Shown here piece after piece: positions 2,251 to 50,367 of a stretch of DNA of 64,000 nt. Source of the DNA: Scolanthus callimorphus (lineage: Eukaryota > Cnidaria > Anthozoa > Actiniaria > Edwardsiidae); NCBI GenBank assembly GCA_033964015.1, contig CM066914.1, positions 10,407,831-10,471,830 of the forward strand, written 5' to 3'. Numbering within the stretch: the stretch's first letter is position 1; every line of letters begins with the position of its first letter. Below the pieces are notes generated by a model, which did not search any database, had not been told where the DNA came from, and saw only the letters and a program-made list of their open reading frames with translations. The translations under genes and the position numbers were made by a program.

Positions 2251-2251
2251 T

Positions 2252-2437
2252 TTATTATTCAGCACATCGATAGCACAAAACCCCCGAAAAACATGACTTT
2301 TGTGTATTATTTACGAGCTCAAAACATCATATTTCCCTCAGAGACGGATATCGCAGGATAGCTGTCATGTACAGAAGACAGCTATTGGCGTTCCAATGAC
2401 CATATTTGGGCAGTGCATCGATGTGCTGAATAATACT
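2252..2437. repeat. Second inverted repeat with an inner hairpin
   Basis: TTATTATTCAGCACATCGAT at 2252-2271 is mirrored by ATCGATGTGCTGAATAATA near 2416-2436. Inside is a smaller hairpin, TAGCTGTC...GACAGCTA, near 2357-2385. It lies directly next to the previous inverted repeat, so both may be parts of one compound element. Confidence 0.65.
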
Positions 2438-12481: not shown

Positions 12482-15400
12482 ATGTTACGTTCAATGGCTT
12501 TAAAAGACCTGAACCCGCACATAATTTGCGTGTTATGTGGAGGGTACCTCATCGATGCTACAACTATTATAGAGTGTTTACACTCGTGTAAGTTGTCGAG
12601 CGTCACGTTTTCAAATGATATCGATGCCTCGGGTTTCTTACATTTTCGATCATGAATTGCTAAAACTTTGGCTAAACAAGAATACATTTTAAACCTGTAT
12701 TGCTGCCAGTAGCTTCGCTCCAAAAGTCCGCGGATTGGACTTCGGGGAGTCTGGCAAGGAGCAAGAAAAGGCACACGGTTTGAGTTCTCCGACTTGAACC
12801 GCGTTTTGTACTTTGTATTCTGTCTCGCTGTTGTTACGCACTTTGTTGGTCACGCAGACCCATGAACTTAACTTTTAAACGAAAAACATAAAATAACGTA
12901 TCCAACGTATCTTTTGCCGCAGGTTTTTACGCGAAAAAGCAAAAAAAAAACACGACCTTCTAAATATAAAAGGCTCAATTTCAGGGTGATTCACAATTTT
13001 TATCATCAGTTTTCTTTTTTAAAAACACACAACACAAACACATTAACCGCAGTGCAGTACTTTTGCTTTGGAGAGTTTTGGAAGCGGTAAAAAATGTTGC
13101 GAATGTTAAGAACTTTATTGGAAAAAGGGTTATCCAGTCTAACGAACTAGTGCTATATAGTTATCCATAATATAAACAAATGAAAACAAAACAGGTTTTG
13201 AAACAAATGAACTAGTCGGTCTCACAGAAAAGGAAAATGTAATAGTGTGTAGGAAGAGGAGCAAAGTCAAAAAGTTAACAAAATTCCGCTATACTTTTTT
13301 CTTCCTTTCCTTGCCAATAACATTTTGAATCGAAGAGTGAAGATTTCATGCCACTACCGTTTGGCAAGAAATGTGTTTTGCCATCAAGTGAATTTGTGTT
13401 ATAAATTTCTCCCTTTTGTTTTCTTGACGCAAAATCAACATCCCTGGGGGAGGGAGCTTCCCTAACAGTCGTGAACCGCGAGATATATAAGAAATATAAA
13501 ATTCAAAAACGCTCTGAAATTAGCGTTTCTTTAGTCTGCTTCTGAAATCGTTCAATGGCGCGCGTTAGGAAACCAGTACGATTTATTGTTATTTGGCAAC
13601 TGCACCAGATAGGCCTGACTTGATCTGGATATGCCGCAACCCGTAGCGGGTTGAGCGGGGGTTCGTATGCTGGAGGCCATATATGTATCGGTGGGGAAAT
13701 TGGGGAGGGGGGGGGGAGAGAAAGTATGCGACATAACTCCCAAACGGGGGTTCTTACTGATCGTGGTTGTCTGATCGTGGTTTTGTTTGTGTTCAGTCTG
13801 CAGGAGCTGTATTGTCAGATGGTTACAAACGAGCTACCATTGTCCCGTCTGCGATACTGAGGTGCACAAAACCAGACCCTTCCTAAATATCAGGTAAACT
13901 GCCTCCCTCTTGTTAGAGTAAATTACCTTGTTTTGATTCGGCGGTTAATCGTGTTTTCTCGGATTTGCCGCAAGGAAACGTCATGAATTGGCTAAATGGG
14001 AACTTTGTGGCATAACATATTACGCGAAAGTTGCTTTTTTTTGCGCGTGCTATCATCAGTGTTAGCGAGACTTGATCCTGAACGAGCCTCCCGTTTCTCT
14101 CTAGGCCTGACCATGTACTTCAAGACATCGTCTACAAGATGATACCAGGCTTATACGACAGTAAGTTAACCGAAGATTCCCTAGATTTAGTAGCGAATTG
14201 AATTGACACTTGCTTCTTTACTTGCAGAAGAGCTGCAAGGACGAAAAGACTTCCAGGCAGAAATAGGTATTGTACTTCGTTTACATGAAGCTTGTGAGTC
14301 GGCTAAATTTTAGGGAAGCACGACTCACAGCTACTCACACAGCGTTACTTCTAGGCCTCTCGCCCTTGCTGGTTCGATTGCTGGCTCGTTCTATTTGGGT
14401 CGTGCGAGTTCTGGACAGCTTAGCCGTTTCACGTTGTCGGTACAAAGTAGATAACGTTGTTTTAACTTTTAGATAAACAAGAGCAAACTGAGCAACAAGT
14501 TTCTCCCAAGGAAGAGAAAGAAAAGGAAGACAAGAAACAAGATGATATTATTGACGATCCCGTCTGCCTCACTCTAGAATACTATGGGTTGGTAACACAA
14601 TATTGCGTATCTCAAAGACACGAAATAACTTATTTTATCGACCTGCGCGCGAGCAGGACCAAAATTCTTAGGAATGACGTTATGAATGCATCTACAAGAC
14701 TCCGGTTCAGGATTTGCCTCTAACTGGAATCATCCAGAGTACTGTGTGGGCATCCGGAAATGGAGATCATTTTAGACTGACTCTTGATTGAACATGATAA
14801 GGATGCTGATGGTGAATTCTCTTATTTTAGGACCAAAAGATATCGCGGGAAAGAAAAACCGGTAAGAAATGTACCCATAGCTCGCGTAAACAGCCATCCT
14901 TTATCGCGCAAGTAGCTGGGTTCCCTGTGGGAAAAGTCTTTCTCGCATACCAGGAAGCAGCGCAATACAGGATGGTTTACTTGGCTGATCTACCCAAGGC
15001 TTTCTTCGATTCAATAGACATTTTAAAAGACGTTAAGGTTTCTTGGACTACGATGACATAATTTTTTTTCACCAGGTGTTTCCTACTCGATATCTGCGCT
15101 GCTCTTCGAAGATGACGGTCAACGTGCTAAAGAAGTTCGTCATCATGAAATTCAGCATCCCACGCTCACACGAGGTAACATCCCCCCCCCCCCCCCCCAT
15201 CCTCCTCGACAATTTCAATCAAATCTCTGCCGTGCACGAATGAAATCGATGATTGTGCCCATCCAGTAGATTTTTCAAGAGGAAGAAACTTCAGCTCTAC
15301 CAGCGAACCAAATGCCAAAACTTCACTTCGCCCAGTTTCGCATTTTGAGAACTGGGTGTTTCGCGCGCTCGACTTTGTCCAGTTCTTCTGTCCAGTTCTT

Positions 15401-16293
15401 GCCCGTGTTTGGTTATTTATTTGTCATTTACCCTGTTTTAGGCTGAAATTGTTCGCAGCGATGAGATTCTCAGTGACCAACTGACAATGAAGGAGCTGTC
15501 CAGGATATATGGCCTGCATTCCAAGGTGTGTAATAAGAGAGAAATCACTGTTCTAAAAATAACTCGGTCTGTGATAGGGATCACTCTCAGTAACAAAAGA
15601 GGAGTTGCATTCTCTGAGTAATGAGCTCTTTGGATGGACTTTGGGGGGAGGCGAAGGGGTTGTCGTGCCATTTGGATTCCCTGGCACTCTTTACTTTCCA
15701 AGATGGTATTTGCCATCGGGGCATCATGTCAACATCGGGCTCACCTTCGTAGCTCATGTCTTGAGATGGGTGTGGCGGTCTATAGCGACGAGTTTGCACC
15801 CGTCTTTAGTCACAAAACTCGGCTCTCACTAACACACGTTCTTGTTTTATTCCCACAGTCGTTCCTGGACCTTCAATACGTCTTCATGGGAACTGAGGAA
15901 CATGCAGCTATGAATGAAGAGGCAGCGCCAAAACACAAGAAGTTCCGACCTTTGAAATTGGTACTCAAAAATTCCCCACAGCCAAAGAAGTTTAAACCTT
16001 CCCTTGGAGACGATCAATCAAATTTTAAAACAGAAACATTGACAGTGAATTCCTCTGAGCCCTCTCCGGCTCCCTCCCAAGACAATAAGATTAATAATGG
16101 ACTTGCCGGGCTTGCGTCATTGAAAGATAAATTATTAACCAACTCGTCAACAACGCCTTTAGCGTCTACGGAGAAGACGCCGATGTCCACTACGATGGAA
16201 TGCCCTGACACGCCCGAGAGCGACAAACAAGTGCCAGAGTTCCCCTCTATTGGTGAGAGCGAACCTGCTCAGGTTGGGATGGAGGCTGTATGA
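12482..16293 (+). CDS. Polycomb group RING-finger protein, BMI1/MEL18 (PCGF2/4) type, copy A
   Basis: PCGF proteins are RING subunits of Polycomb repressive complex 1; they pair with RING1/RNF2 to ubiquitinate histone H2A in the nucleus. Nine exons: 12482-12587, 13797-13893, 14105-14160, 14228-14266, 14473-14587, 14831-14861, 15076-15174, 15442-15525, 15859-16293 (353 residues). All phases join. The C3HC4 RING is complete: C16, C19, C32, H34, C37, C40, C51, C54. It is followed by the family signature [14 protein letters not shown]. Exons 5-9 carry a RAWUL-like domain ([36 protein letters not shown]). The tail is Ser/Pro/Thr-rich and starts with a basic [10 protein letters not shown] patch. 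[20 protein letters not shown] fits BMI1/PCGF2 better than PCGF1, 3, 5 or 6. An acceptor at 12459 implies a 5' non-coding exon. The exon 5 donor GG|GTTGGT is unusual, but copy B has the same arrangement. Confidence 0.93.
15181..15199 (+). repeat. Poly-C tract in intron 7 of PCGF copy A
   Basis: A homopolymer C run starts a few bases after the exon 7 donor. Its length in the assembly is probably unreliable. Confidence 0.8.
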
Positions 16294-17068: not shown

Positions 17069-20000
17069 CTAGGATCCAGGGCCTTCCCCTTCACCGCCTA
17101 TTGCGCCTATGAACTCAGCAAAAGAATTTTCACTCGTTTCAGAGTGAAAATTCAACAAACCGTCCATCTTTACCTCGCCTTGGCTACCAGAACCAGCAGT
17201 TCCGCTAGGCGATATGTGCTCTTGTAATGAGCTTCTGAGCGGCAAACATGGCTTTTCCCCGCCAGGTTGAGTGTAGAAAGGAAGCACGTGTCGATTGTGG
17301 TGGATAACCCGTATCTCCCCAGCGTTCACCACGTGTTTGACCGGTTGTTTGTCCTTCAACACGTGCCCCACACGTGGCTGCTCTCGTCCGTTGCTACTCT
17401 TCCTTCTCTCCTCTTCTTGTGCTCTTTTCCGTTGTTTCTCGACACGTTCTTGCTCCTCCCTCTCCTGTCGCTCCAGTTCGAGTCTTCTCTGTTGTTGTTT
17501 TTTGTATCTGAGAAAGAGTTCTTGTTGTTTCTGTTGTTGTTCGGTTTTCAAACGTTTCGCGCGCTGCTCTGCTTCGTCCTCGTCTTCCTCCTTGCCCTCC
17601 GCAATAAAAAGATATTGGAGATCCAAGAAAGGCTAAAAAGACAGGGAAATACATTATTCCTTGCGTACAATGCACATCTAATATATAGAACCATATAGTA
17701 ACTCAAAACGTAGCCATTAAATTAAAAGGAAATTCGGCAGTTTTATGTTAGTATCCACAGGTTTAAGAAAAACGCTAGAATTCGTTCACAGCGGCAAACA
17801 AATTAAAACCGCTGTAGTAAACTACCTTTGCATATAGACCGTATATCCTTGTCAATTCTTTCAAGGTCAAGTGATCTTCTAGAATCTCGTCACATCGGAC
17901 TAGCTCTGACTACAATAGAGAAACCCATGTGTTAGAACTATAGTGCACTCTTCGGGTCTCCGGAATTCCGGGATGGCTGGTCCTAGAGCAGCCTGGAATT
18001 CCGGGTTGTGTATCCTAGTACTGGAGTAAAATTACAAGGTGGGTATTCCCAAAATATAGTATTCCAGTGTGGCATGGGTAAACATTTCCAGGGTGGTCGC
18101 GAGAACATTCGCTGGAATTCCAAGGGTGGATATAGGAGCAAAAAGAAATTTATAGGATGGGTACCTGAAACTAGTGTCCAGAGTTTGCTTGCGACTGCCA
18201 AATAACAGCCACAAGTTGAAAAAAATGGCGCGCGTCACTCACCCTGTGTGTAGGAGGAATACCAAATTTGATTGTCAGGAACTTCTTGAGCACACGAACA
18301 GGCACCGATGATGAACAGCGTAGATACCGAGTAGGGAAAATCTGCAAGAGAAAATAACAATCTTCTTAATTGTGTCGTCTTTTGAGCCTCATAAAGTTCT
18401 CAGGTCTCACGTACGAGGCTCTGGTAACAGCTATTTGCGGGGCTTCACTGAATATTTTGAACGTCAGGGCATGCGCACAAAGATTTTCTCATGCATCAAT
18501 GGCTGTTACCTTCCCCGCGATTTCTCAGGAGCGAGGGAGCTCTAGGTTCGAGAATGAAAAGGGACGTAAATACAAACAATGGGCTGTTCCCAAACAAATT
18601 TGTACCCCCCTATTGAGGAACTCCAAATTTTCACAAATTGCTCTACCCCTGTGGAAATTCCAGACTCCTGTACTACCCCTGTGGAAATTTGAAGCAACCC
18701 TTGTGGAAATTCCTTATTCTCTTGTGTGCCTGTGGAAATTCCACAGTTGCAAAATGAATAACCTGTGGAAATTCCAGGGTAAAATGGATGGTCCTGTGGA
18801 AATTCCAGGGTCAAAATCAACAAACCCTATGGAAATTCCAGGGCCAAACAGCGATCCCTGTGGAATTTCCAGGTTCCTCGATAGGGGGGATACAATTTTT
18901 TTGGGGAACAGCCCATACAAAAAGCAAGAACAAAAATCTTTTAATTTACCTGCTTTTCAAATGTGTTTCTTTGACGCCTAGAAAACAAGAGGGAGAGTTC
19001 CGTTGCCGTCAGTCTTTCTTACGTTGCAACATGCCAGAACAAATGAGAACATCCCTAACCTGTAGAACTCTAGTGTAATGCACACAGGGTCCTCGATATC
19101 AGGGTCGCCATTTTTAGGGGTTTTTTCCTGCTTCTCCGTGACTTTATTCTCTTCCTTGGCTGCAGCTTCTGACATGGAAGAATACGTAAATGGAATAAAA
19201 AAAAACAAGTGGTAGGGGGTCGTTTTACCTCTCACGAGATGGGATGTCAGATTTTCGATATCACTTGGATGAACAGGACATGGTACAACGTTTACAATAG
19301 GATACGATTTAATAAAACCATGGGACGTCGTATGACGTCACTTAGGGTAGATAAGAAATATTTTGACGTCACTTTTGGGAAAATCATCATGACGTCACTT
19401 GAATGGAACAATAGGCATGGTATGACGTCACTTAGAGAACAAAACATGGTATGGCGTCACGTATGGAGTAACATGACGTCACTTTTGAATCCACGAATCC
19501 ACATGCTTAGTATGACGTCACTTATGGAATAACCCATATAATGACGTCACGTATGGATCCATAGGCATTGCATGACGTTCACTTATGGAATAACCCACAT
19601 TATTTTATGGCATGTTATGATGTCAATTGTTAAACCTTAGTACGGGGTATGATATCAGTTGTCAAACCAATCATATGGTACAACATGGCACGCATTCATT
19701 CATGGAACAATAGACTATTGTCATGATACGTCACAATACATGGTATGACGTCACGGAACTTGGGAAGACGTCATATATGGAATAACAGGACATCAGATGA
19801 CGTCATCTATGAAACCATAGACTGGCATGACGTCAATTGAAAGCATACGTCATGATATGGCGTCACAAGACATGGTATGATGTCACTTGTAAAAATACAA
19901 ACAGAATACAAAACCATGTGTGGCGTGGCACTGATGGAATGTATGGAACCATTGAATAATGATCATAGTATTAGCCGGCAAATAAGAATAATTGTTTAAA

Positions 20001-21880: not shown

Positions 21881-22056
21881 TTTCGTTCGGATTCTAGAGG
21901 AGAAAACAAAGGCTCTTCGTTGATGATGTCAGTTTCACGGCCCGGGATGTAACTCGCCAGCCTCTTTTATCATTATCTAGTGTAGTTTAATGTTCTTTTG
22001 CAAGCTTCACTAGTTTATCGTGGCGTCTTGGCTTAGCGTGTCAATAAACGAGTGAA

Positions 22057-22308
22057 CATACCTGCCAACCTTGGACAAGTGAAAACCGGGAGATAGGGGA
22101 AAGTGTTGTCATAACCTCGTCTCACCTCCCCCCCCCCCCCAAAAAAAAAAAAAAAAAACGTTGCTCGCTTAAAATCTTTAGGTTTTAATGCAGAAATTGA
22201 CTGAGCAAGTTGATTTCCCGGGAGATTTACGGTGAAAACCGGGGAGACCGGGAGATTTGACTCAAAACCGGGAGTCTCCCGCGTAAACCGGGAGAGTTGG
22301 CAGGTATG
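22057..22308. mobile_element. MITE with CATACCTGCCAAC terminal repeats
   Basis: The left end is CATACCTGCCAACCTT and the right end is GAGAGTTGGCAGGTATG. The inside contains several ACCGGGAG motifs and a C-run/A-run junction. About 250 bp, non-coding. Confidence 0.75.
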
Positions 22309-22337
22309 GAGTGAAGCTTGTAGGTCTACTCTGGAAC

Positions 22338-22612
22338 CATTTTTCCCCTTATCTCGCCTTATCTCGCCTTTCAATTGGACCATTTTCCCCTTATCTCGCC
22401 TTATCTCGCCTTTCAATTGGACCATTTCCCCTTATCTCGCCTTATCTCGCCTTTCAATTGGACCATTTTCCCTTATCTCGCCTTATCTCGCCTTTCAATT
22501 GGACCATTTCTCCCTTATCTCGCCTTTCAATTGGACCATTTTCCCCTTATCTCGCCTTTCAATTGGACCATTTCCCCCTTATCTCGCTTTATCTCGCATA
22601 AACTCGCGGCGA
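22338..22612. repeat. Minisatellite of CCTTATCTCGCC and TTTCAATTGGACCATT units
   Basis: Alternating blocks of CTTATCTCGCC (one or two copies) and TTTCAATTGGACCATTTTCC repeat about eight times. Overlapping open frames in all three plus-strand frames are produced by the repeat. Confidence 0.93.
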
Positions 22613-23144
22613 GATAAGGTCACAGAGCAGGCCTGCTTGTAGACTCTGGTACCCAGGGTATCAATCTACTGGAGTTGAGTTCGGAGCAGTTATAGTTTTG
22701 TCAGTATAAGTTTTTTTGCGTTTGTTTTAGCGTCTGAAAAGTCCATTGACAAGGTCCGTAACGTTGTCAACAAAAAGCTCTCGTGATTTGGAAACTTTGT
22801 CTCGACATTCCTTGACAACGTTATGAAGTGGCCTTGACAACATGGTTTTTGAGACACAAATCTGTCAAAACAAAACAACCAGATAATTTATCAACAAACC
22901 GCTCCAACCTCAACTGGATAGCGCAGTATTTTCATTATTCAAATGGTACTTGGTTCGATTTTCGAAAGTCGTCTCTTTAGATATCGTGTTGAGTGAAAAG
23001 TTATAAAGGAAAAGAAAATCAGTTGCCCCGAGAACCGTAGCGCTAAGACCATTTGTTTGTTTGCTAGTGCGTTGTGCCCGTCCTCTAGATTGAGGGGGTA
23101 TCACCAACTGCTAACGGGCGTTCCAACTCCCAGATACAAACTAA

Positions 23145-23330
23145 GTCCCCGTCCACACTACACCGTTTTCAAGATACTTTTTGCTCCGTTTTCAAAAAGA
23201 TTTGCGTCCACAGTTATCGTTTTCGTATTGTTTTCGGTGATCGTTTTCGGCGTTGTAGTGTGAACGATAGCCGTATCCGGAGCAAAAAGTATCCGTTTTC
23301 GTTTGAAAACGGTGTAGTGTGGACGGGGTC
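23145..23330. mobile_element. TIR element, Harbinger-type MITE
   Basis: TIRs begin GTCCCCGTCCACACTACACC and are flanked on both sides by TAA, consistent with the 3-bp TWA target duplication of PIF/Harbinger elements. The two arms include GCTCC...GGAGC and cover most of the 186 bp. Confidence 0.8.
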
Positions 23331-26254
23331 TAAAACAAATCATAATATTTTATTTCAGTATAACTTATGTTAATATTTCATTCATTTGCTTCGAGTCTAA
23401 ACACGTTAGCTTTTGGTTTCGAAGTAATCGGAAATCTAAACGTCGAAGGTGGTCCGAGCTTTTGTCGTTGATTGAAGGATAAAATCTCCAGGTGGACTCT
23501 GACGTTTAAGCTCAAAGTATTGTAGGTTTACCAGGCTTGTCCGTGAGTAGTGATACATCGTGCAAGGAAGCGAAACGCAGTTTGTTTTGATTTTTGTACT
23601 TTCATTTTCGCATCATATTTGGATAGCGGACTTTCTTTCCGGCGTGTAATGGTAACACGCATTACTATTATCGCAAAAGACATCAGTTAGAAAAGCTTTA
23701 CTCCAAATATGAAATTCTCCCCAGATGCGGAACTTTTAAGATGATATTCCCGCAATGATCATACACTCAATTTACACGTTCATGGAGGTCGAGACGGACT
23801 CGCGTTTCCAGGGATCCGAGAACTCGTACATTTATTTCAAGAAAAGATCGTTTCACAAGTAAACCGTGCTTTTTTGTCCGAGAAACGTATCCCGCTCGTT
23901 GTTCTTATGGAAATAATCTTTACGTTTGATGTAAAAAAACATCGTCTTTGATGAAAAGTGACGGCTGTCCAATGACATGAATAACCGGTTTCTTTGCGTA
24001 AATGTCGACTTGATTTTGCACCGTGTTTTGAGTTTTGCTTTACTCAGACGAAATGGTGGATTTACTCACTAAACTTTATTTGACACACGGACACACGAAA
24101 TAACGTGGTTTACCAAGGATGTTTAGTTCTCAGAGTCCTTCACGGCAACATGACGCAAGAATCACAGCACCGCAAAATATGTTGGAGTTAATTTTACTCG
24201 TCGGTATAACAAGTCTAACAACCATATACGGATATTTTTACACAAATGGAAACTCAATATACGCCAGTTCCTGTTAGGCAATTCCTGCTTTAGAATATTC
24301 CAATATTTATTGTGGGGGTTTCGGCCAGAGCATTGTACAATAGAATAAGGCAGACTGCTGGGCTTGCATTTATTTTGTAAGACTGGAGTGTAGATAGTAA
24401 TTGTTTTCTTGTAAAAGGACAATCTGCTCAGATTACACCGCATGACTCTCGATACACTCTTTATTTTCTTCTAGGTTTCTATTTTACTAACAAAAAATTG
24501 TCAAAAGTGCAAAGTTTTAATTTTCGTTTTGACACTGTCATCTGCCGGCGTCCGTTCCGTGATATGACCCAACCACGACGTCACCGACTAAAAGTCCAAC
24601 TATAACAAATTTTAATTATCATACCCCGAATAAAGGACTGGCTGAATCAAATAAACATCATTTTGTTAGTATAGAACAAATACTATTACAAGGTAATAAA
24701 CACAGAGCATTATCAAAACTAAGATAGTCAATATATCTAAAATGTTAAACGGAACTTCTACGTCGGGTACGGACTTAGAACTCCCAACGAACAAACACTC
24801 CGTATCGTCACTCAAATTGCCTCCAAAATGTCAAAATGTTACAAATATTTTTATACAGTCAGCAAGACTAGTTATTATTCTAACGTAATGCGAAGTTTCA
24901 AGCCATAGTTTTGAGCGCAAGTTGATATTTTACCTGTTTTCTGTGTCGTGGTTGTAGGTCTTGCAAATTTGTCGAAAGCTTTCTGGTTCATGCTGTTATC
25001 GATTAACGACCCCATGGCCACGTGACCGATCGTGCCAGTCTCTCTCTACCGACTCTTACGTAATAGATAGTGCACTGGCAAAAATTGCTGATCGAAGAAG
25101 ACTAACCGCGTTACACTTTTTAGAAATGAAAACGGGTTTTAAAAATATCAGTGCATTATTTTCTACAGTTGCAAATCAAGCAAACGAATCCTTGATCCAG
25201 GAAAAAACGTTCTCTGTACATAAATTACAAATACAATGTGTTCTGAGTGCGAAAGACCGCACAGACAGCGCAGAATGCGAATATGAGTTTTGTCGAGCAA
25301 AGAAACCCAGAAAAAGCAATGAGAGAAATTGAAGAATTTATTCGTTGTGCCAACAACACTCAATCGTTTCTCTTTCTGTCCTTTTCTCCAAGGTTTCTCT
25401 GCTCTGTGAGACCGAGGGAATGCCGACATATTACTGTAGCTTTGTTTTCAGTGTTTTCCACTTTAAGATTTTCTTTGGTTTGTCTTTACACAATATTTAA
25501 TTTCTTCTGTTGCCGAATGCATTATGCTTAAATGACCACTTGTGAAGCGCAATACTAATAATTGAACGCTTTTTATACTGAGTTTTGATTCACAAGACAA
25601 GACGCATCTCATCACGTAGGGCCTTTGCACACACAAAAACTCGCCGACTTGCACGTGAAAATACAGTACGACTTTCCAGAATCTGAACAGATATCTGAAG
25701 TAATGTTTATACCTTGTAAAAAATTGTAATAATTATTACTATTACTGAATGGTGAGGCTTTAGTTACCTGAATGGACTGCTCCTGTAGAAAAGAAGAAGA
25801 CAGTTCCATCAGCAACAAACTGGGATTTCCCTCTATCCTCTACTCTACTGCTCACTAGAATATTACGCAACGATGCTCATGTGGTCTCCTGGAACAAGCC
25901 ACGTGAGTCGGCCGGCACTAAAGAAATAGTTTATAGCAAATGAACGAATAAGTTAAGTAATAACACGCTCAATCATTAGGATAACCGGGTATTGAGTATT
26001 TGACGGGGTGAAATTTTGGCGCTACTCCTAAGCGCTAACAACAGTCACACGCGTTTAGCCGGAATTTTTTTCGCAGTAATTCTGGTCGTTCCAACAAGTT
26101 TGCAACGTTGTAAAAATGTAGAAATTCTGGACTATTATTGGACGCTATTTTGTCACATTTGGCAGGTGGTCCTTCGTGTAGAATTATCCCATCAAAAAAA
26201 GTCTCAACCAAGCGAAATTTTCACAACAGCGACGTGGTCAGATTTATCTTTCTA

Positions 26255-26538
26255 AAGGCCAGTTTACACTTACGATTTTCCTCGCGCGAGTTGCAATTCC
26301 AACTCGCTTGTGTAAACGATATGCAAATCTGATTTCTGTGCTCTCTTTTTCTTCAAATCGCATCAAGTTGCAAAGAGTGTGTGCCATGTTTGAAATCTTC
26401 ACGATATCACGCGACAAATATCGTGGCAGATCGCGCCGAGTTGCAACTAGTTTACATTAGTGATTTTGAGTTCACGCGTATGTGCGAGAAAAATCGCCGC
26501 GACTCGCGCGACAAAAATTGCAAGTGTAAACGGACCTC
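26255..26538. mobile_element. TIR element with GGCCAGTTTACACTT ends
   Basis: Left end AGGCCAGTTTACACTTACGA; right end TTGCAAGTGTAAACGGACCT. Inner parts repeat sub-motifs of the ends (GAGTTGCAA, GTTTACA). About 280 bp, non-coding. Confidence 0.7.
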
Positions 26539-26999
26539 AAAAAATAGATATTTGCATTGTCAATCATGTCTTCATGAGGTACGCACGTACGTACTGTTTT
26601 GCTACGCACGTGTACACCACACCACAGACACCACACCAGACACCACACACCACACCACAGTGTGAATACAGAAATCCTCTAGCATGCACTGGGTTTACTG
26701 GACTAGGGGGTCCCATGAGGGGGTCCTCTTGGCTATTTCGGGTGACAAAACGAGAGTAGCTTTAAAGGGGCAACATATCATGCCCACAATACATTGCCTT
26801 TTTTAGTACAAACGATTTAGTGCATCAGAAACTCTCTCTAGTCATGCAAACGATCGTGTACTTTTACGAGCATTCACGCGTTCGTTTCGTAAAATGAGCT
26901 AAACCTGGCCCGTAGCTCACGCCCTTGGTTCGTTGTCTTCATTTTTCCAGAGAAAACAAAAACCTCGTTTTTGTGGCCTGAGGAGGGTTCGTTCGAACC

Positions 27000-27205
27000 C
27001 CTCGAACCCCCTCCCCTACGGCCCCCCTCTCCTACGGCCCCCCTCTCCTACGGCCCCCCTCTCCTACGGCCCCCCTCTCCTACGGCCCCCCTCTCCTACG
27101 GGCCCCCTCTCCTACGGCCCCCTCTCCTACGGCCCCCCTCTCCTACGGGCCCCCTCTCCTACGGCCCCCCTCTCCTACGGGCCCCCTCTCCTACGGGCCC
27201 CCTCT
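27000..27205. repeat. CTCCTACGGCCCCC minisatellite, about 14 copies
   Basis: 15-16 bp units CTCCTACGGCCCCCCT or CTCCTACGGGCCCCCT. The array resumes for two units at 28011-28040, on the far side of the inserted element at 27206-28010. Confidence 0.93.
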
Positions 27206-28010
27206 CACGATGGTCGGTTGCTAGGGTTTTTTCCTCCCGGAAGCTACTTAAATTAAATTTTAGGCTCAACGAGGAGTAGATTATATTCCAAATGAAGCAA
27301 AACAATACTAAACATCTTACTCAAGAAAAATCCAATTTTGTACAATTGTAAAGGTTTTTTCGTGTTTTCTTGAAAATATGACGTCATAAGTGACTCCTAT
27401 TTTTAGTAACAACATCGGAAATTTGTAAAGCAAGAAAAACGTTGAAAACGTTACAAACTTTTTTGCTACACAAAAATAAGATTTATAGCGAAAACTCCAA
27501 CTCAATCCGATAAAATGGTGTGAAGTTACAGCTAATGAAAGGATTCAAAATTCCCGCCTGATGACCATATATGGTCAATATTGAGGCTATTAAACGCGAG
27601 GAAGAATTAATGGTTCGACTAATTCTTCCTCGCGTTTAAATAGCCTCAATATTGACCATATATGGTCATTAGGCGGGAATTTTGAATTCTTTCATTAGCT
27701 GTAACTTCACGCCATTTTATCCAATCGAGATGCGGTTTTCGCCATAAATCATAACATTCTATAAAGAAAACTAATATGTGATTTTGACTGTTTCTTTCCT
27801 AAATTTTTATACTAATGTCAAATTTGGTCATCAATTATGACGTCACAATAGCAGTCACATGGGATCACATGACACAAATTGAAATATAATTTATTGACCT
27901 ACTTTCCTGCCAAGTTTCGTCACATTCGATGCAAACTAATTCTGTCTATGCCCGGAAACTCTCAGTTTTGAGAGGTGTGGGAGAAAAAGCCCTAGCAACC
28001 GACCACCGTG
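27206..28010. mobile_element. TIR transposon inserted inside the minisatellite, with a central palindrome
   Basis: The left end CACGATGGTCGGTTGCTAGG and the right end CCTAGCAACCGACCACCGTG are reverse complements with one mismatch, and the TIR extends about 10 more bases inward. A 3-bp TCT flanks both sides. The centre (27540-27725) is a nearly perfect palindrome around TTAATGGTTCGACTAATTC. Both flanks belong to the same minisatellite, so the insertion is younger than the array. CAC... ends with a 3-bp duplication resemble CMC/EnSpm elements, but the family is not certain. No transposase is present. Confidence 0.88.
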
Positions 28011-28849
28011 TCTCCTACGGGCCCCCTCTCCTACGGGCCTGTTAACTGACAAAAAGTATTCACAGTATTGAGCTTTATGCAAAGACTTTATGCAAAGACC
28101 TCCATACAAATTTGCCTCGGTATATCGGTAAAATTGCTAAAAAGACGCGATATTTCGATATTCTCATTCCGCTCGGTATGCGGGATGTGGCTTAAAAACA
28201 CGTGTTTTTTTTCGGGAAAAAGTTCTGAAATGACGATAATTCGGTATTATCTTTGTTTGCGGTGACCGGGATTTTATAGAGCTGGGAGATCAGGCGCGAA
28301 GCATGCCAAATCTTCTGCGATTAGCTTCCTGAACCAGTATAATTTTCACGGTCAGTCGAATGAAATAATAGTGCAGTGTCTTCTAGACGAGTTTTTAACA
28401 CGGTATCGCGATATTTGTCGAATTTCGGACGCGATATTACGGTATTTGCGACTTGTGGACGCGATATTCGAGGGTCCCCTCACCCCCTTCATAAATAATC
28501 TGTGTCAAGAGCGCTTTTGTTTGTGTACATAACCTCACCTTTAAAAAAACAAAGTTCTACTATAAAAACTTTTAAAAAAATAATAATTTGCCCACTATGA
28601 CAAAAGTAAAACAGATAATAACAGGAGTGTGCAGTGAGTGTGATTTTACTAAGTTAATTTAGACACACATATTCCTTTGTTCTATTTTTTGGGTAATTGA
28701 AGCGCAAAAGCCACACATAAAGATGATATAGGAAATTATTTATTCAAGAATCTAGTCTACATAATATACATATAACTCGTTCAAAAAAGGTCTCTTTGGC
28801 AATTGAGCTTTGATAATTGAGAGCCATTAAAAAGTATTGCAGGCTATTT

Positions 28850-29550
28850 AAGGTTACTGAGAACCTTCGCGCACGTGTTCGAAAAAAAAATCATACACGT
28901 CCTTAGTTTAACCAAAACATATCAACCTATATATCGTTGGAAAGCTTATAGAATGGACTAGCGAACTATGGAAAAAGAATTATTTTTTTCATAATTACAA
29001 ATTTTTTTAAGGTTTTATTAAAAATTCGGCTGTGAGAGTTTCAAGAGATAACGCTGACGAACTGCTAGACCTTGACTCCCAAGTAACACATTGTTTTAAT
29101 CATTAAAGGTGTTTCTCAAAAACCGTGTCTGCGTTTTTTAAAATTTTGCTTTGCTCAAAAGTTATCGAACTTTTAAATTTCGAAGGTCAAATTTTGTGGA
29201 ATTTTCACGCTCTAAAAATTTTAAAAATTCATAACTGCTGAACTAAACAAAATTTAAAAAATCGCAGACACGGTTTTTGAGAAACACCTTTAAGGATTAA
29301 AACAATGTGTTACTTGGGAGTCATGGTCCAGCAGTTCGACAGCGCTAGCTCGTGAAAATAGCACACCAAAATATTTAATCAATGCTTTAAAAAAAATAAA
29401 AGGTATCAATAAGTGATTTCTTTTTGCCATAGCCCGCTAGTCCATTCTATAAGCTTTCCAACCATATATAGGTTGACATATTTTGGTTAAACTAAGGACG
29501 TGTATGATTTTTTTTTCGAACAACGTGCGCGAAGGTTCTCAGTAACCTTA
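28850..29550. mobile_element. Fold-back element, about 700 bp palindrome
   Basis: The left arm starts AAGGTTACTGAGAACCTTCG and the right arm ends CGAAGGTTCTCAGTAACCTT. Matching inner blocks include CACGTCCTTAGTTTAACC, AAGCTTATAGAATGGACTA and TGACTCCCAAGTAACACATT. The arms are about 330 bp each with a short centre near 29200. No coding capacity. Confidence 0.88.
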
Positions 29551-29968
29551 ACAAATCTAGACGATTATTTCGCTAATTTCTTGCGAATTTGACTGCATTA
29601 AAGCTACCTCAAGTAACCCTAAAGTGGTGACACTACCCCCTTTAAGTTGCCATTAGCAAAAGATTGAAAATTTATCGATTGGGCCTCTTAGACTATTTGA
29701 AAATGCTTTTGCATGCCAGACCCACAAAGGCTATTGCATCTGTATCTTTTGGGGTGTATAAGTGAAAGTTAATGAATCATACAAGGGCAATGACTAATTG
29801 AGTATTGATCATCTTTCTGCCTTTCAACAAAGCTATATTACAACAGCTATATCATCAGTTGTCACAACATGGGTCCTTTGCTTCCACCCATATTGCTTGA
29901 GTAGCTATATTTCACTGATGTGCATTTGTTACCTTCCTGGTACATCTAGAGTGACATGATAACACTAT

Positions 29969-32900
29969 TTACATGTTTGCAGCTCGCTCTAAAGTTTTAC
30001 AGGCATCTTTGAGCTTTCCAACAAGATCCTGGAAAATGAAAAATATAATATATACATTTACTTTTTTCCTAGAGGGCACGGTACCAAATTCCGCATTCTG
30101 ATTAGTTCTTAGAGTGTGCACGCATGGGCGATATTTTCCTATATTTGACCTAGGTCACGGTAACCATTTGCGTGCGCTTGTTTTCATAAAATATTTTATT
30201 AGAGTTGGAAAAGGATAAAAAATAAGTTATTTACTGGCTAAGGTCGGTCAGTATTGGGAAAAACCGTGACCTCAGCCTGGAAAATGTTTGCCTCTGTAAG
30301 AGCCTTGGTCAACATTTTCCATCCCTTAGTCACAGTATTTCCCCATAAGGACCTCCCAGTCGGTGAATAACATATATCCATGATATACCAGATTCCAGGT
30401 TAGAATACCTTTACACACAATTATATTGTTGGGAAAGGGGCCACAACACTAAAGTTTGGGAAAGCAGTTGTCCAACAAGGATCAATGCCAGCTTTGAAAT
30501 GCATCTATACTACCTTTTTTGGAACTTCAAAATGTCTGGTCTTAGAACAGAACAAACAATATTGTTATACCTGTAACTGCTCCATAGAACAAGAAAACTG
30601 GACATCTTTCTGATTAGAAGTGTTGCTATCCTGTGATGGTCAGAAGAACAAAAGTTTGTTGCCATGGTCTGTTGTCAAAAAACAATTCAAATTTTTTTTT
30701 TTTTGGGGGGGGCATAATTATTTGTGGGCCAAGTAAATTTTATTTTAAGGGACAACAACAAACAGCACAACTCATTAGACAAGGCTTAATGTAAAAAATC
30801 ATTGGTTGAAAAAATAAGTCTTTCATTTGCAGCAGCTGGATGACAACTTAAAGTGCCACTAAAGGCAGAAGTCAACTACATTTCATCAAAAAGATCCATC
30901 ATCCAAGGGAACAGTAGCGAAACAAAAATGTGCTTTACGCCCGCCGTTAATATTTTATTGATTTTTGAATACTTTCGATTGGCGTTTTTTTTTTTTCGTT
31001 CAACTATGCGCGATGCATCTTGGGGGAGAAGTTCTTCAGAACAATGGTTCCTATGACGCATGAAGAAGACATAGAAAATACAACAAAGAAGGTCTTTGTT
31101 CTTCTTTCATTGTCTTCTTCATGGTCTTTGTTCTACTTTCTATGTCTTCTTCATGCGTCACAGGAACCATTGTTCACCCCACAGGATGCAGAAACACATA
31201 GTTGAACGAAAAAAAAATCGCCAATCGGAAATATTAAAAAATCATAAAATATTAACGGCGCGCGGTAAACACATTTTTCTTTCATTACTGTTCCTTTGGA
31301 TAATGGATCTTTTTGATGAAATGTAGTTGACTTCTACCTTTAGTGGCACTTTAAAGTAGGCCCTAAGCAACCTGTTACCCTGATGGCTTAACAGAGCTTC
31401 TTAAAGTGGCTTGAACAGATCAGGGCTCACATTAATTTGTAAAGTATTCAGAGTGTACAGTACCTCCGTTTTTAATGTGATTAGATATGTGGGCTTGTTA
31501 ACTTTCTCCATATGATTGTTCTGTAGATAAAAAAAACATTTAATACTGAGAACTGAAAATCTACTTTTCTCTGAATTAAATTGACAAGTTGTTTTAGGAT
31601 GCTTGCCTTGATGTAATAATCTAACCTCCAGTCCACATCAACAATATGTGGAAAAGAGCTTCCAGTGCTGTTGAAAAAGTAAAAAAAAAAGTTACAGTAA
31701 CATGAATACAATTGAACTTGAAGGTAGTTAATAGCTTATGTGCTCACCTGCTAAGAATGGCCTCTACTGCTGTCTTGTTCTCCTGGTAGCAGAAGTAATA
31801 GAATCAGGTAAACAGAAAATAAATATTTGCATTCGAATAGGAATTTTATGCTCTCGCCCCCATGTATTTAATATGTACATCAAAGTGCATGTGATGTAGG
31901 AATTAACTGGAAGGAGGGTTGGGTGTCATATGGTGGGATAGAATTTCAAGCACACAGAGTCGCTCATTCGAGCCCTCCAACACGGTCGAGCAGCATCTTG
32001 TGTTTTCTTCAACTCCCTTTTTTACAGCCAGCGAACAGAGCTCAGGCTAGCCGCAGCATTTGTTTAACAATGGGGGCGAAGGCATAAAGGGAGGTATTAC
32101 CATCCTTACATGGCACCACATGGCTAATGTGAGATTTGAGAAAAAACAATATACCATCCCCATTGAAGGGATTGGAAATTCCAGAGGGTTGTGGTGGTGG
32201 GAGGGGCACTCAGTTTTCCTGCAATTCCCCATACAATCACTGCATTTTTCGCTGGAAATTAGGGGTGGGTCAGGGGGTCATATTTCAAACCCTTCCATGG
32301 GAGGGTATGGATAATTTTGGAATCACGCAAACATATTTGGAAATCAACATACCTGGTAAACATTTCCAAAGTATTCAATTCTCTCAGTTGTCCATTTACA
32401 GTCTTCTAGATTGGAACTGTTTTTAACAAACATATGTCACAGAGTCAGTAATAAGAAGGCTAATAATATAGAGCAGATTTTATGAGTGTTGAAATTAAGT
32501 CAGACTTGCTCTTTCTACGTGGTCCTATTAGTTGAAGTCTTGGATATTTGTTTAGCAGCCAATAAGAATGCAAAGAAAAACCAAACACACAGTGACCTTT
32601 GTTTTCTTGGGTCAGAATTAACTCAAATCATACTGACTTCATCACATGTTGGCCATTTGTTGAATAGACCTCCTCAGCTTGGGTGTAATGTTTTGCCCAT
32701 TTCAGATCACATGGCATTCCCATGAGTATTCTCTCTTTGTTTGGAATGCTTCAATATTCATATATCCTTCGCTGCACAGCAGAAAAAGAAAGAGGAATGC
32801 CACATGGGAATGCCACATGATCTGAAGTGGGAAAACATTATGCCCAAGCCGAGGAGGTCTATTTGTTCTATTTCTGAATGACTATGTGTATTTACTTTGC

Positions 32901-33813
32901 ATTAAGTTTCGACACTCATCCAACAACTACTCTATGGAAATGATGGTGGTGATACATATCTTATGAAGTATGACAGCACAAGCAGTTTGTGAAATACCTG
33001 ATATTTGTGGAATCACTATCTGTTTTTACAGCTTCTAATATCAATGAGACTATTCCAGCATAAGCTTGTTTCAGAGTAGCAGCATCTACTATAGACAAAT
33101 CCTCATTGACTGTAAATGATAGAGGAATAGGGTTGTGAGACAGGAAAACCCTGATCTCTGGGGAGAGTTGGGATCCCTGTGTAGCCCATTCACATGCTTC
33201 AATTTTAGCTGCAATAGGCCACTTGCACTAACTGGGTCAAATCCAATACATTGAGTCAAAATCTTGAAAATTCAACTTGCTCCCATTTGCTCCAGGCTAG
33301 AGATTTTATGCTGAAACTTCAGTTTCTGACTAGTAATATCAATTGGTTCTTTGTATTTCTGGAATTGATTTTGACAAAACATCTTGTTAAGAGGTAGTTG
33401 GGGTCACGACCCAGGGTTCCAGAAAATATCCACACCAAAATATCCATCACACCTCAAGTTGCATGTGGGCCATCAAGCCAGCCATTCCAGGATAATTTCA
33501 CAGGTTGTCATTCAGCACGTCCCATATAACATCAGGTCCATGGCAGTCGCCCGGCCTGACAAATGTTTTCTTTCAGATTTATTAGTCTATTAGAAGATAG
33601 ATTGCTCTCTATCTAGCAAAATAAAGATAATTATTGCAGAGCTAAGAAGGACACATATCGTAAATGCGTCATACCTTGCAGAGAACTCTCATCTTTGCGT
33701 CTGAGTAGAATATCAAATGCAGCTCCAAGCAAAGCCCGGAAGCTACGGTCGCCAACTCTTGCAGAATCTCCACACAAACTCACTCCCTCGCTCACCAAAC
33801 TGCTCAGCTCCAT
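29969..33813 (-). CDS. COMMD3: COMM domain-containing protein 3
   Basis: COMMD3 is a subunit of the Commander (CCC/retriever) endosomal recycling complex. Eight exons on the minus strand: 33813-33675, 33109-32998, 32416-32353, 31782-31748, 31667-31607, 31520-31464, 30630-30571, 30028-29969. All phases join, giving 195 residues, exactly the human length. The N terminus (MELSSLVSEGVSL, then FRALLGAAFDILL) and the central segment (LKQAYAGIVSLILEA, LEDCKWTTERIEYF) match the helical N-domain. The COMM domain begins at about residue 124 with the family Trp motif (FPHIVDVDWRLDYYIK), followed by PTYLITL, FSCSMEQLQ and DLVGKLKDACKTLERA. Intron 5 appears to use a GC donor (AAG|GCAAGC). Intron 6 carries a TTAA-flanked palindromic element. 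CISD3 is divergent from it across 294 bp, so a shared promoter is likely. Confidence 0.96.
30852..31350. mobile_element. TTAA-flanked palindromic MITE in COMMD3 intron 6
   Basis: The ends are AGTGCCACTAAAGGCAGAAG and its complement CTTCTACCTTTAGTGGCACT, each flanked by TTAA, the target of piggyBac-like transposases. The arms are about 200 bp and include ACTACATTTCATCAAAAAGA. The centre is GAAGAAGACATAGAA-type imperfect repeats. No transposase ORF. Confidence 0.82.
32662..32865. mobile_element. Inverted-repeat element in COMMD3 intron 2
   Basis: AATAGACCTCCTCAGCTTGG at the left and CCAAGCCGAGGAGGTCTATT at the right are complementary. The arms continue through ATGTTTTGCCCATTTCAGATC and its complement. 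About 200 bp, non-coding. Confidence 0.75.
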
Positions 33814-34107
33814 TGGTAAAAACCACTAAGTCTGTTCTCCAGATAAATATGCTACTTTTACGCTTTAAATAATTACAATTTAGGTCGCAGGTGCGGAAAA
33901 AAGAAGTGTTTTTAGATCCTCAACTTTCACGCGCCTTCGCCGCCATCTTCACAGTCAAGAATACTCTCCAGTCCCCTCGCGCGCGGGACGCGAGGAACGC
34001 CTGATGATCATTGCAGAGTCGGAGTCGAAGAACTATTTAGAGTTGTCGCCAGTGCGCACATTCTAAAAGCTGTTTCTTTGCCTAGATTGCCTAACAATTG
34101 TACTAGC
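33814..34107. promoter_or_regulatory. Likely bidirectional promoter, COMMD3 / CISD3
   Basis: The start codons of two divergent housekeeping-type genes are 294 bp apart. The spacer contains GCCGCCATCTT (33939-33949), which on the minus strand reads AAGATGGCGGC, the YY1 site often found near animal transcription starts. CG dinucleotides are locally enriched (CGCGCGCGGGACGCGAGG). Promoter activity is inferred from layout. Confidence 0.6.
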
Positions 34108-35782
34108 ATGGCTTTATTAGTCAGGGGAATGTACAGCAAAGTTGGTATTCGGCTGGTTTCGACCGGTGTGAAGCAGGTTAGAGAAGTGATGCATGATGTA
34201 GATGTTGCTAACGTTTTCAGCTTGATGATGCAAGTCCTTTTATTGTTTGTTCTTGAATCAACATTTGCCCTAAAGGCGCTACGGCCCTGTATAAGAACCA
34301 TATGACATTTTATAATTATGTTTTCAGTTTTGTTACCGTGGCTTTGCATCAGCATGTGTTGCAGCAAAACAGCCTTTCCAGGTTGAGCTCCAGCAAGGCA
34401 AGAGGTACTCCTGGTGTAGATGTGGGCTTAGCAAGAAACAGGTAATACATGTTTAACAGAATAGAAGTTCCTAATGTTATATATTCCCCACCCTATTTCT
34501 CATTCATAGTTCTAAGCAATGCCATACTTCCGGGGAGGTGGGTTGGGTGCAGACGCAACCCCTTTGTGATACAAAAATGGGAAAATGTAGTCCCAAATGC
34601 GGGCTCTTTGGACCACAAATGCACCCCCCCCCCCCTCCCTTTCCAAAAGCCTGGATCCGCTCCCCCCCCCCCCCCCCCCCCTCCATTTCCAAAAGCCTGG
34701 ATCCGCTCTTGCACATAAAAGAGTTAAGGGGTACACAGGAAAAATAAACTTCAACCGAAAGAGCTATACTGATGTGGGAGTGAACTATTGATCTGTCTGA
34801 CTTCTAGCTACTTAACTCGACTAGCCTTTGCTATTTTTAAGTAGCTTTGTTCTCCCCGCTATAATCTATTTCCAATACTATAATTAATTATCTCAGAGGA
34901 CAAATAAAGTATTTTGTTGTTGTTGTTTGAACCCTAAAAGACACTGGAAGTTGCAATATATTGCTTTTGCGAGAGCAATTTCCAGTGGAATCAGTCTAGT
35001 CTGCATGTGATGTTTCCTTTGTGATTCAGTTATGTAATTCTATAGAAAATAAGGTATTTGCTCCCTGGTAAATTGATTCCCCTCATACCTTATTATTGTA
35101 CCTCAGCTACAATTCCCAATCCCAATGCTAAAGGTGCATACCAGTATTTTATGGCATCAAATATTTAAACAAACTGCACAGTTGTTCTGCAAAATGAAGC
35201 AGTCACCCCAGCAGTTATTGCCTGGAAATCGAACCACACTAGAGTGAGATTAACCAAAATGATTCATAACACCTGGAAGTTATTAAAAGGATACAGAATC
35301 TTTACATCTGACAGGGATTTTGCAGCTTGTTTGCTCACCCTAGAGCTGACACAATACTGAGGTGAGTATCCACCCACCTCAGTGCCATTCATCAATGCCT
35401 TTGTCTTTGAAGTCAAATGCTTGTTTTCTAGAATAAATGGTATGCAATGCATGTCTCACATTCAGGGAATCCCCCCTTTGGATGACGGTTTGATGAATCT
35501 GTGATTGCTACTGGAGCATGCACATATCCTGACAGGCTCCCTTTACAAAAATCTTTAATTAGTTAATTACAAAGTGATTTTTTTTTTGCTTTCTCTCATT
35601 AGCCATTCTGTGATGGAAGTCACAAAGGGACAGGTATCAGTCCTGAACGATTTCGTCCTGAGGAAAGCAATCCAGAGGCATTTCTGTGTGGTTGTAAACA
35701 GACAAGCACTCCTCCATTCTGTGATGGGACTCATGCTACTGAGAGTGTACAAGCAGCAGAAATAGGGAAGCCTTTAAACTGA
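34108..35782 (+). CDS. CISD3: CDGSH iron-sulfur domain protein 3 (mitochondrial MiNT)
   Basis: CISD3 is a mitochondrial matrix protein holding two 2Fe-2S clusters in one chain. Exons 34108-34176, 34328-34441 and 35603-35782 join in phase 0 to give 120 residues. Two CDGSH motifs are complete. The first has C53, C55, C64, H68 (WCRCG, then PFCDGSH); the second has C90, C92, C101, H105 (LCGCK, then PFCDGTH). The preceding KQPFQVELQQGKRYSWCRCG is the canonical lead-in. The first 35 residues (MALLVRGMYSKVGIRLVSTG) are basic and hydroxylated without acids, as expected for a mitochondrial targeting sequence. An AATAAA lies within 10 bases after the stop. It is divergent from COMMD3. Confidence 0.96.
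34621..34706. repeat. C-run repeat with AAAAGCCTGGATCCGCTC, two copies, in CISD3 intron 2
   Basis: Two copies of CCTTTCCAAAAGCCTGGATCCGCT-like sequence alternate with long C runs. Open frames through it on both strands (poly-Pro and poly-Gly) are artefacts. Confidence 0.8.
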
Positions 35783-40200: not shown

Positions 40201-40247
40201 CTGTGCGGCATTTGTATTTAATTCATCCAGAGTGTAAAATTTCCAAG

Positions 40248-43797: not shown

Positions 43798-50367
<6,570 letters not shown>

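What the first reader, a model, noticed from the sequence alone, without database searches (positions are those of the whole stretch)
12482..35782. COMMD3, CISD3 and BMI1/MEL18-type PCGF genes in one cluster
Seen: two PCGF genes, COMMD3 and CISD3 within 23 kb, all supported by full exon chains. Known: in human, COMMD3 is the immediate neighbour of BMI1 (PCGF4), with read-through transcripts, and CISD3 is the neighbour of PCGF2 (MEL18) on another chromosome. Inference: the human pairs are two halves of one ancestral cluster split by genome duplication and loss, and this genome keeps both. COMMD3 and PCGF copy B are also in the same order and orientation as human COMMD3-BMI1. Conservation this old in a Polycomb locus suggests a regulatory constraint.
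Basis: partly seen in the sequence, partly recalled or inferred. Interest (0 to 1): 0.9.

Follow-up and report, generated by a model that had tools for sequence, protein, structure and literature searches.

The report
Ancient CISD3–COMMD3–PCGF2/4 gene cluster
A sea anemone chromosome keeps CISD3, COMMD3 and two Polycomb RING genes side by side; in humans the same genes sit in two pairs on two chromosomes, which is best explained by one old gene block that was duplicated and thinned out in vertebrates.

Summary
The window (a sea anemone; nearest named relative Nematostella; C4:10.41–10.47 Mb of a 597-Mb assembly) holds PCGF_A (+), PCGF_B (−), COMMD3 (−) and CISD3 (+), with 25 introns (24 GT–AG, one GC–AG). 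COMMD3 and PCGF_B follow the human COMMD3–BMI1 order and orientation. COMMD3 and CISD3 are head-to-head, 294 bp between start codons.

The main inference is well supported. CISD3, COMMD3 and PCGF2/4 genes share a contig, all three or in pairs, in other anemones and stony corals (Oculina tags 025806/807/810), and PCGF and COMMD3 do in a nemertean. The MLLT6/10 and PSMB3 genes, human neighbours of CISD3–PCGF2, are on the same anemone contig.

Two corrections. PCGF_A and PCGF_B are not MEL18 and BMI1 side by side: they are anthozoan duplicates, jointly orthologous to both. "Regulatory constraint" is unproven: 8.1 kb of repeat-rich DNA separates COMMD3 from PCGF_B, none of 25 named cnidarian PCGF entries listed carries a COMMD3 domain, and CISD3's orientation differs from human.

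Found on the way: PCGF1-, PCGF3- and two PCGF5-like genes in one 52-kb cluster on contig C6.

The parts
12482..16293 (+). PCGF_A, PCGF2/4-type RING–RAWUL protein, 353 aa; coding exons 12482-12587, 13797-13893, 14105-14160, 14228-14266, 14473-14587, 14831-14861, 15076-15174, 15442-15525, 15859-16293
   Evidence: Pfam RAWUL 2.9e-12 and RING; clade with Nematostella P0012, Actinia P0007, Exaiptasia P0033
17069..21880 (-). PCGF_B, PCGF2/4-type RING–RAWUL protein with a long charged C-terminal part, 399 aa; coding exons 21775-21880, 20964-21060, 20221-20276, 20016-20072, 19060-19168, 18950-18977, 18243-18341, 17826-17909, 17069-17632
   Evidence: Pfam RAWUL 1.6e-10 and RING; BMI1 8.1e-55; clade with Nematostella P0001/P0002
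16294..17068 (.). 775-bp interval between the stop codons of the convergent PCGF_A and PCGF_B
21881..29968 (.). 8,088-bp interval between PCGF_B and COMMD3; tandem and inverted repeats, no recognised gene
   Evidence: repeats; six ORFs of 68-132 aa gave no Pfam match above cut-off; length
29969..33813 (-). COMMD3, 195 aa; exons 33675-33813, 32998-33109, 32353-32416, 31748-31782, 31607-31667 (GC donor), 31464-31520, 30571-30630, 29969-30028
   Evidence: Pfam COMM_HN and COMM_domain; PDB COMMD3 1e-49; 73% identical to Nematostella COMMD3 over 100%; one copy
33814..34107 (.). 294-bp interval between the divergent COMMD3 and CISD3 start codons, putative shared promoter; GCCGCCATCTT (YY1/Pho-like, motif name recalled) at 33939-33949 and an imperfect GC palindrome at 33975-33995
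34108..35782 (+). CISD3 (two CDGSH motifs), 120 aa; exons 34108-34176, 34328-34441, 35603-35782
   Evidence: Pfam zf-CDGSH, two stretches; human CISD3 structure 1.1e-26; better match to human, gar and amphioxus CISD3 than the two-motif paralogue on C1

Best explanation
This is the cnidarian version of an old animal gene block, CISD3–COMMD3–PCGF2/4, with MLLT6/10 on the same chromosome. In vertebrates genome duplication made copies of the block. One kept COMMD3 next to BMI1 (PCGF4) and lost CISD3. The other kept CISD3 next to PCGF2 and lost COMMD3. In sea anemones the block stayed on one chromosome and the PCGF2/4 gene was itself duplicated locally. Products (inferred from families): PCGF_A and PCGF_B are RING–RAWUL partners of RING1 in canonical PRC1; COMMD3 is a Commander-complex subunit; CISD3 is a mitochondrial 2Fe–2S protein. 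How the link is held (inferred): CISD3 and COMMD3 probably share the 294-bp divergent promoter and so cannot be separated easily; PCGF stays next to COMMD3 by slow rearrangement or, less surely, by a shared cis-regulatory region.
For: Shown: four intact genes. Oculina tags G025806 CISD3, G025807 COMMD3, G025810 PCGF. PCGF2/4 clade support 100/99, with cnidarian and bilaterian sister groups 99/99 and 96/95. In this genome an MLLT6/10 match lies at C4:11.08 Mb (four exons, 67–89% identical) and PSMB3 at C4:4.41 Mb (78%), while PCGF1/3/5-like genes lie on C6 and the second CDGSH gene on C1. A human 17q12 gene list runs MLLT6, CISD3, PCGF2, PSMB3, PIP4K2B (PMC2958950, passages seen). COMMD3-BMI1 read-through is annotated at 10p12.2, and vertebrate fusion proteins have the order COMM_HN–COMM–RING–RAWUL in 5 of 5 scanned.
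Against: In the older Nematostella assembly one PCGF (P0023, A type) is on a 558-kb scaffold and COMMD3/CISD3 on a 2.66-Mb scaffold, so close linkage of that copy is not shown. One of three listed Actinia PCGFs (P0007) is on another contig. CISD3 orientation relative to PCGF differs between anemone and human. A second two-motif CDGSH gene exists on C1, though it is the poorer CISD3 match. Outside cnidarians and vertebrates only Lineus could be tested, and only for one 16.5-Mb contig. Several shared contigs are tens of megabases long, which shows linkage but not closeness. The comparisons use contig length as contig identity. Two further human neighbours (PIP4K2A, LASP1) could not be located because the server did not complete.
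Confidence: 0.85

Rival explanations
1. The linkage is real but passive: the genes belong to one ancestral chromosome, and slow rearrangement in anthozoans leaves neighbours together. No regulatory constraint acts.
For: MLLT6/10 and PSMB3 are on the same contig but 0.6 and 6 Mb away, as expected of chromosome-scale inheritance. 8.1 kb of repeat-rich DNA lies between COMMD3 and PCGF_B. CISD3 differs in orientation between anemone and human.
Against: The three kinds of gene sit within about 14 kb here (PCGF_B start codon to CISD3 stop codon) and are direct neighbours in pairs in human. Whole-chromosome inheritance alone does not predict that; Oculina tags put CISD3 and COMMD3 next to each other.
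Confidence: 0.5
2. A regulatory constraint, shared enhancers or COMMD3–PCGF read-through, has held PCGF next to COMMD3 since the cnidarian–bilaterian ancestor.
For: Same order and orientation COMMD3→PCGF in anemone and, as the read-through implies, in human. Predicted COMMD3–BMI1 fusion proteins occur in cartilaginous fishes, teleosts, mammals and a bird: 20 of the 120 listed PCGF hits carry the COMMD3 N-terminal domain, 13 of them the COMM domain too (756 hits in all, 120 listed).
Against: 0 of 25 named cnidarian PCGF entries in the same list carry a COMMD3 domain. The 8.1-kb spacer is repeat-rich. COMMD3's last residue, near which the two full-length fusions read (a chimaera, P0060, and a teleost, P0075) leave the COMMD3 frame, is not conserved: M in 23 of 120.
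Confidence: 0.25
3. PCGF_A and PCGF_B are counterparts of PCGF2 and BMI1, so the duplication is older than the cnidarian–bilaterian split.
For: Two copies in one cluster, both PCGF2/4 type.
Against: Vertebrate BMI1 and PCGF2 group together (99/98), and the 18 cnidarian rows form the sister group of the bilaterian rows (99/99). A groups with Nematostella P0012, Actinia P0007 and Exaiptasia (98/96), B with Nematostella P0001/P0002 (100/99).
Confidence: 0.02
4. The adjacency in this window is a coincidence or an assembly artefact.
For: None found.
Against: The same genes share contigs in several other cnidarian assemblies, and the window lies inside a 34-Mb contig.
Confidence: 0.02

Closest known systems
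Human COMMD3–BMI1 pair (10p12.2) with read-through transcript
   Same: COMMD3 lies upstream of a PCGF2/4 gene on the same strand
   Different: Here 8.1 kb apart, with no sign of read-through proteins; CISD3 is head-to-head with COMMD3 on its other side
Human CISD3–PCGF2 pair (17q12; MLLT6, CISD3, PCGF2, PSMB3, PIP4K2B)
   Same: CISD3 close to a PCGF2/4 gene; MLLT6/10 and PSMB3 on the same 34-Mb contig
   Different: Human genes are convergent and overlapping; here COMMD3 lies between them, CISD3 points away, MLLT6/10 is 0.6 Mb and PSMB3 6 Mb away
Ancient metazoan microsynteny blocks (Robert et al. 2022, PMC8851819; outline and abstract seen)
   Same: Small gene group kept together; [quoted passage not shown]
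   Different: Whether this block is in that paper's tables was not checked (supplements could not be opened here); it contains a Polycomb gene with local duplicates
Drosophila Psc / Su(z)2 tandem pair (recalled, not tested)
   Same: Local duplication of a PCGF2/4-type gene
   Different: An independent event in insects; here the two copies are inverted and sit beside COMMD3 and CISD3

Membership tests
PCGF2/4 (canonical PRC1 PCGF) | N-terminal C3HC4 RING plus C-terminal RAWUL domain | tested here: met
   A: RING 16-54, RAWUL 153-216; B: RING 16-54, RAWUL 156-219
PCGF2/4 (canonical PRC1 PCGF) | Groups with BMI1/PCGF2 and not with PCGF1/3/5 | tested here: met
PCGF2/4 (canonical PRC1 PCGF) | Assembles with RING1, CBX and PHC and binds nucleosomes | not testable with these tools
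   Needs biochemistry; the HKTRP stretch after the RING is present in A and B, its role being recalled
COMMD3 | HN domain plus COMM domain and best match to COMMD3 rather than other COMMDs | tested here: met
   Pfam; PDB COMMD3 1e-49 against COMMD4 3.6e-6
CISD3 | Two CDGSH motifs and closer to vertebrate and amphioxus CISD3 than the other two-motif gene of the genome | tested here: met
   Two zf-CDGSH stretches; summed tblastn bits of the two main stretches to recalled human CISD3 about 115 for the window gene against about 81 for the C1 gene, and only the window gene matches the tail after the second motif
CISD3 | Mitochondrial presequence, no transmembrane anchor | not tested
   No targeting or membrane predictor was run
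Human COMMD3–BMI1 / CISD3–PCGF2 arrangement | Direct adjacency, COMMD3→PCGF on one strand | tested here: met
   PCGF_B is the next recognised gene downstream of COMMD3
Human COMMD3–BMI1 / CISD3–PCGF2 arrangement | CISD3 convergent with PCGF2 | tested here: not met
   CISD3 is divergent from COMMD3 and points away from the PCGFs (human state from PMC6746723)
Human COMMD3–BMI1 / CISD3–PCGF2 arrangement | Read-through COMMD3–PCGF transcript | tested here: inconclusive
   0 of 25 named cnidarian PCGF entries listed have a COMMD3 domain; no RNA data available

The most novel reading that the evidence does not exclude
The cnidarian–bilaterian ancestor carried two Polycomb loci: one canonical (MLLT6/10 near CISD3–COMMD3–PCGF2/4) and one non-canonical (PCGF1–PCGF3–PCGF5 in a local cluster). 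The canonical locus was held by a coupled unit, a CISD3/COMMD3 shared promoter plus a COMMD3–PCGF regulatory domain, whose trace in vertebrates is the COMMD3-BMI1 read-through.
Probability: 0.2. Interest if true: 0.75.

Novelty: new member of a known kind. Interest (0 to 1): 0.55.

Why it matters
It gives an outgroup state for two human gene pairs and explains both by one block plus complementary loss. It also makes a testable case of whether a Polycomb gene's neighbourhood has been kept since the cnidarian–bilaterian ancestor by regulation or by inertia. Together with the non-canonical PCGF cluster on contig C6, it suggests that much of the PCGF family grew by local duplication and that anemones still show it.

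Tried and rejected
Latent splice donor overlapping the COMMD3 stop codon as a conserved read-through device: two full-length fusion proteins run to the end of COMMD3, and the window has ATG TAA there, but the final M occurs in only 23 of 120 listed COMMD3 proteins. Dropped.

PCGF_A/B as MEL18/BMI1 counterparts: rejected by the trees.

Human paralogon neighbours inside the window: recalled PSMB3, LASP1, MLLT10 and PIP4K2A gave no match at E 0.05 in the window and none at 0.01 in 40 kb of flanks; PSMC5 did match in the window.

CpG enrichment of the COMMD3/CISD3 interval: CpG o/e 1.22, only the 81st percentile of 300-bp windows. Not used as evidence.

CISD3 as the only two-motif CDGSH gene: I first took the C1 match for a CISD1/2-like gene; a check showed two CDGSH motifs there.

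A search of the PSMC5 stretch against plasmids gave no match and says nothing here.

Literature: no paper in the held library contains COMMD3, BMI1, CISD3 and PCGF2 together; the listings (20 or fewer papers each) showed no title about this cluster. These are open-licence PMC papers only; supplements were not opened. Passages of PMC7891386 and PMC7230241 were looked at and added nothing.
Full report
What is there. The window lies at C4:10407831–10471830 of a 596.8-Mb, 302-contig assembly. PCGF_B and COMMD3 are closest to proteins of the sea anemone Nematostella vectensis (63–70% and 73% identity), so the organism is taken to be a sea anemone but not that species. All 25 introns have AG acceptors, 24 with GT and one with a GC donor. 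PCGF_A and PCGF_B are convergent, 775 bp between stops, with the same exon phases. COMMD3 and PCGF_B share strand and order, 8,088 bp apart. COMMD3 and CISD3 are divergent, 294 bp between start codons. The COMMD3–PCGF_B interval holds tandem and inverted repeats, and six ORFs tested there gave no Pfam match above cut-off.

Copy number. The genome search scores only its best candidates and works exon by exon. COMMD3 is found once (one further match at 22% identity on C7). Of 27 PCGF matches, those outside the window are PCGF1-, PCGF3- or PCGF5-like on C6, an unassigned pair on C6 and C30, and RING proteins of other kinds or not examined. The PCGF2/4 genes recognised in this genome are thus those of the window. 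CISD3 has a second, more divergent two-motif relative on C1. Recalled human CISD3, a gar CISD3 and an amphioxus CISD3 all match the window gene better than the C1 gene, and only the window gene shares the tail after the second motif.

What the two PCGF copies are. In a 28-row tree and a 26-row tree without two long octocoral branches, PCGF2/4-type proteins separate from PCGF1/3/5 with 100/99 support. Within them, bilaterian (96/95) and cnidarian (99/99) proteins are sister groups. PCGF_A groups with Nematostella P0012, Actinia P0007 and Exaiptasia P0033 (98/96), PCGF_B with Nematostella P0001 and P0002 (100/99). Forcing A and B together is rejected (AU p = 2.95e-5; the pair is the finding's own, but the test was run after the first tree had been seen). 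The A lineage is thus older than the split of these anemones, while both copies are younger than the cnidarian–bilaterian split; they correspond jointly to PCGF2 plus BMI1. Branching among coral and anemone groups is poorly resolved. Identity A/B is 81% in the RING part, 67% in the RAWUL part, 32% between them, and little in the C-terminal part (3 of 17 aligned positions). [quoted passage not shown]

Linkage in other animals. The protein database gives the length of the contig that holds each protein; equal lengths within a species were taken as the same contig (an inference). PCGF and COMMD3: same contig in Nematostella (22,031,953 bp), Exaiptasia (1,148,405), Oculina (33,308,145), Desmophyllum (1,575,597), Acropora palmata (24,464,178) and the nemertean Lineus (16,534,156), 6 of 6 species. 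Against this, in the older Nematostella assembly PCGF P0023 is on 558,438 bp and COMMD3 P0192 on 2,658,636 bp. COMMD3 and CISD3: same contig in Oculina, A. palmata, Pocillopora damicornis (302,957) and older Nematostella (2,658,636), 4 of 4. PCGF and CISD3: same contig in Oculina, A. palmata and Actinia (76,214; two of its three listed PCGFs, the third on 101,495), not in older Nematostella, 3 of 4. These tallies, made by eye, cover the non-vertebrate species for which two of the genes appear, with a contig, among the best 120 hits of each search. In Oculina the tags run CISD3 G025806, COMMD3 G025807, PCGF G025810; in Desmophyllum two PCGFs are OS493_022029 and OS493_022036. Tag order is taken as gene order (inference).

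The human side. CISD3 and PCGF2 are a convergent overlapping pair (PMC6746723, one passage), named in the order MLLT6, CISD3, PCGF2, PSMB3, PIP4K2B in a list of 17q12-q21.2 genes (PMC2958950, passages). BMI1 and COMMD3-BMI1 read-through are at 10p12.2 (PMC6862657, one table passage); that MLLT10 and PIP4K2A lie near BMI1 is recalled. In the anemone a match to recalled human MLLT10 lies at C4:11.080–11.085 Mb, 0.61 Mb from the window (four exons, 67–89% identical; a single-exon match on C3 has the lowest E-value but only 50% identity and is taken for a more distant PHD protein; no reverse search was done), and the one PSMB3 match is at C4:4.41 Mb. PSMC5 lies in the window (43.8–49.0 kb) and a SPOP-like gene just beyond it; both are on human chromosome 17 by recall. 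The contig is 34.3 Mb, about 6% of the assembly. Two further neighbours, PIP4K2A and LASP1, could not be placed.

Interpretation. One ancestral block, doubled at the vertebrate genome duplications and then thinned in complementary ways, explains both human pairs and the anemone cluster. The claim of regulatory constraint is weaker. Fusion proteins appear only in vertebrates in this sample: 20 of the 120 listed PCGF hits carry the COMMD3 N-terminal domain (13 also the COMM domain), and none of the 25 named cnidarian entries does. The spacer is repeat-rich and CISD3 differs in orientation. The one element that would itself tie two genes together is the 294-bp divergent interval of COMMD3 and CISD3, which holds a GCCGCCATCTT site and an imperfect GC palindrome. 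That motif class has five matches in the window against 0.07 expected, but three of the other four cluster at 36.5–37.2 kb, so its meaning is open. CpG content of the interval is not exceptional. Divergent transcription from it is not shown.

Overall: observation confirmed, main inference about 85% likely, regulatory constraint about 25%.

Noticed in passing
G000:C6:31707063-31758867 (loci L035-L040): Non-canonical PCGF genes form one cluster within 52 kb: two PCGF5-like (−), one PCGF3-like (+) and one PCGF1-like (−), by tblastn with recalled human proteins, no tree made. It looks like a surviving local cluster of the PCGF1/3/5 group, whose human members are scattered (recalled).
   Followed up: partly
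G000:C6:4788730-4792949 and G000:C30:377245-381257 (L005, L006, L026-L029): A further divergent PCGF-like gene with a very similar twin on contig C30, perhaps a second haplotype; class (PCGF6?) not settled.
   Followed up: partly
G000:C1:34627336-34628240 (L048, L049): A second gene with two CDGSH motifs, about 49-66% identical to the window CISD3 over its motifs.
   Followed up: partly
window 40116-41033 (+): Long single-exon ORF of a class A G-protein-coupled receptor (7tm_1, 6.8e-47).
   Followed up: no
window 43801-49011 (−): PSMC5 (26S proteasome ATPase), ten tblastn stretches, 56-100% identical to recalled human PSMC5.
   Followed up: partly
window 59301-59588 (+): Possible agrin NtA-like exon, below the Pfam cut-off (E 0.004).
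   Followed up: no
window 3-5000 (−), roughly: Exon-like ORFs of an unidentified protein (334-aa ORF at 3-1004), no Pfam match.
   Followed up: no
window 20313-21612 and 26975-27238: Dense tandem repeats of 8/16 and 11 bp, mostly in the first two introns of PCGF_B, and a 16-bp array in the COMMD3–PCGF_B spacer; inverted-repeat pairs at 27.46-27.77 and 28.88-29.52 kb might be MITE-like.
   Followed up: no
PCGF_A C-terminus (window 15859-16293) and P0007, P0012, P0033: A short motif C-P-x-T-P-E-S-D near the C-terminus is present in 4 of 4 A-type anemone PCGFs and absent from PCGF_B; coral copies P0011 and P0021 have a looser F-P-(D/E)-T-P-P. It might be a phosphorylation or docking motif.
   Followed up: partly
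L045 (C4:10481831-10491830), L043 (C4:10397831-10407830): SPOP-like MATH and BTB exons on one side of the window and a FAM124-domain exon on the other.
   Followed up: no
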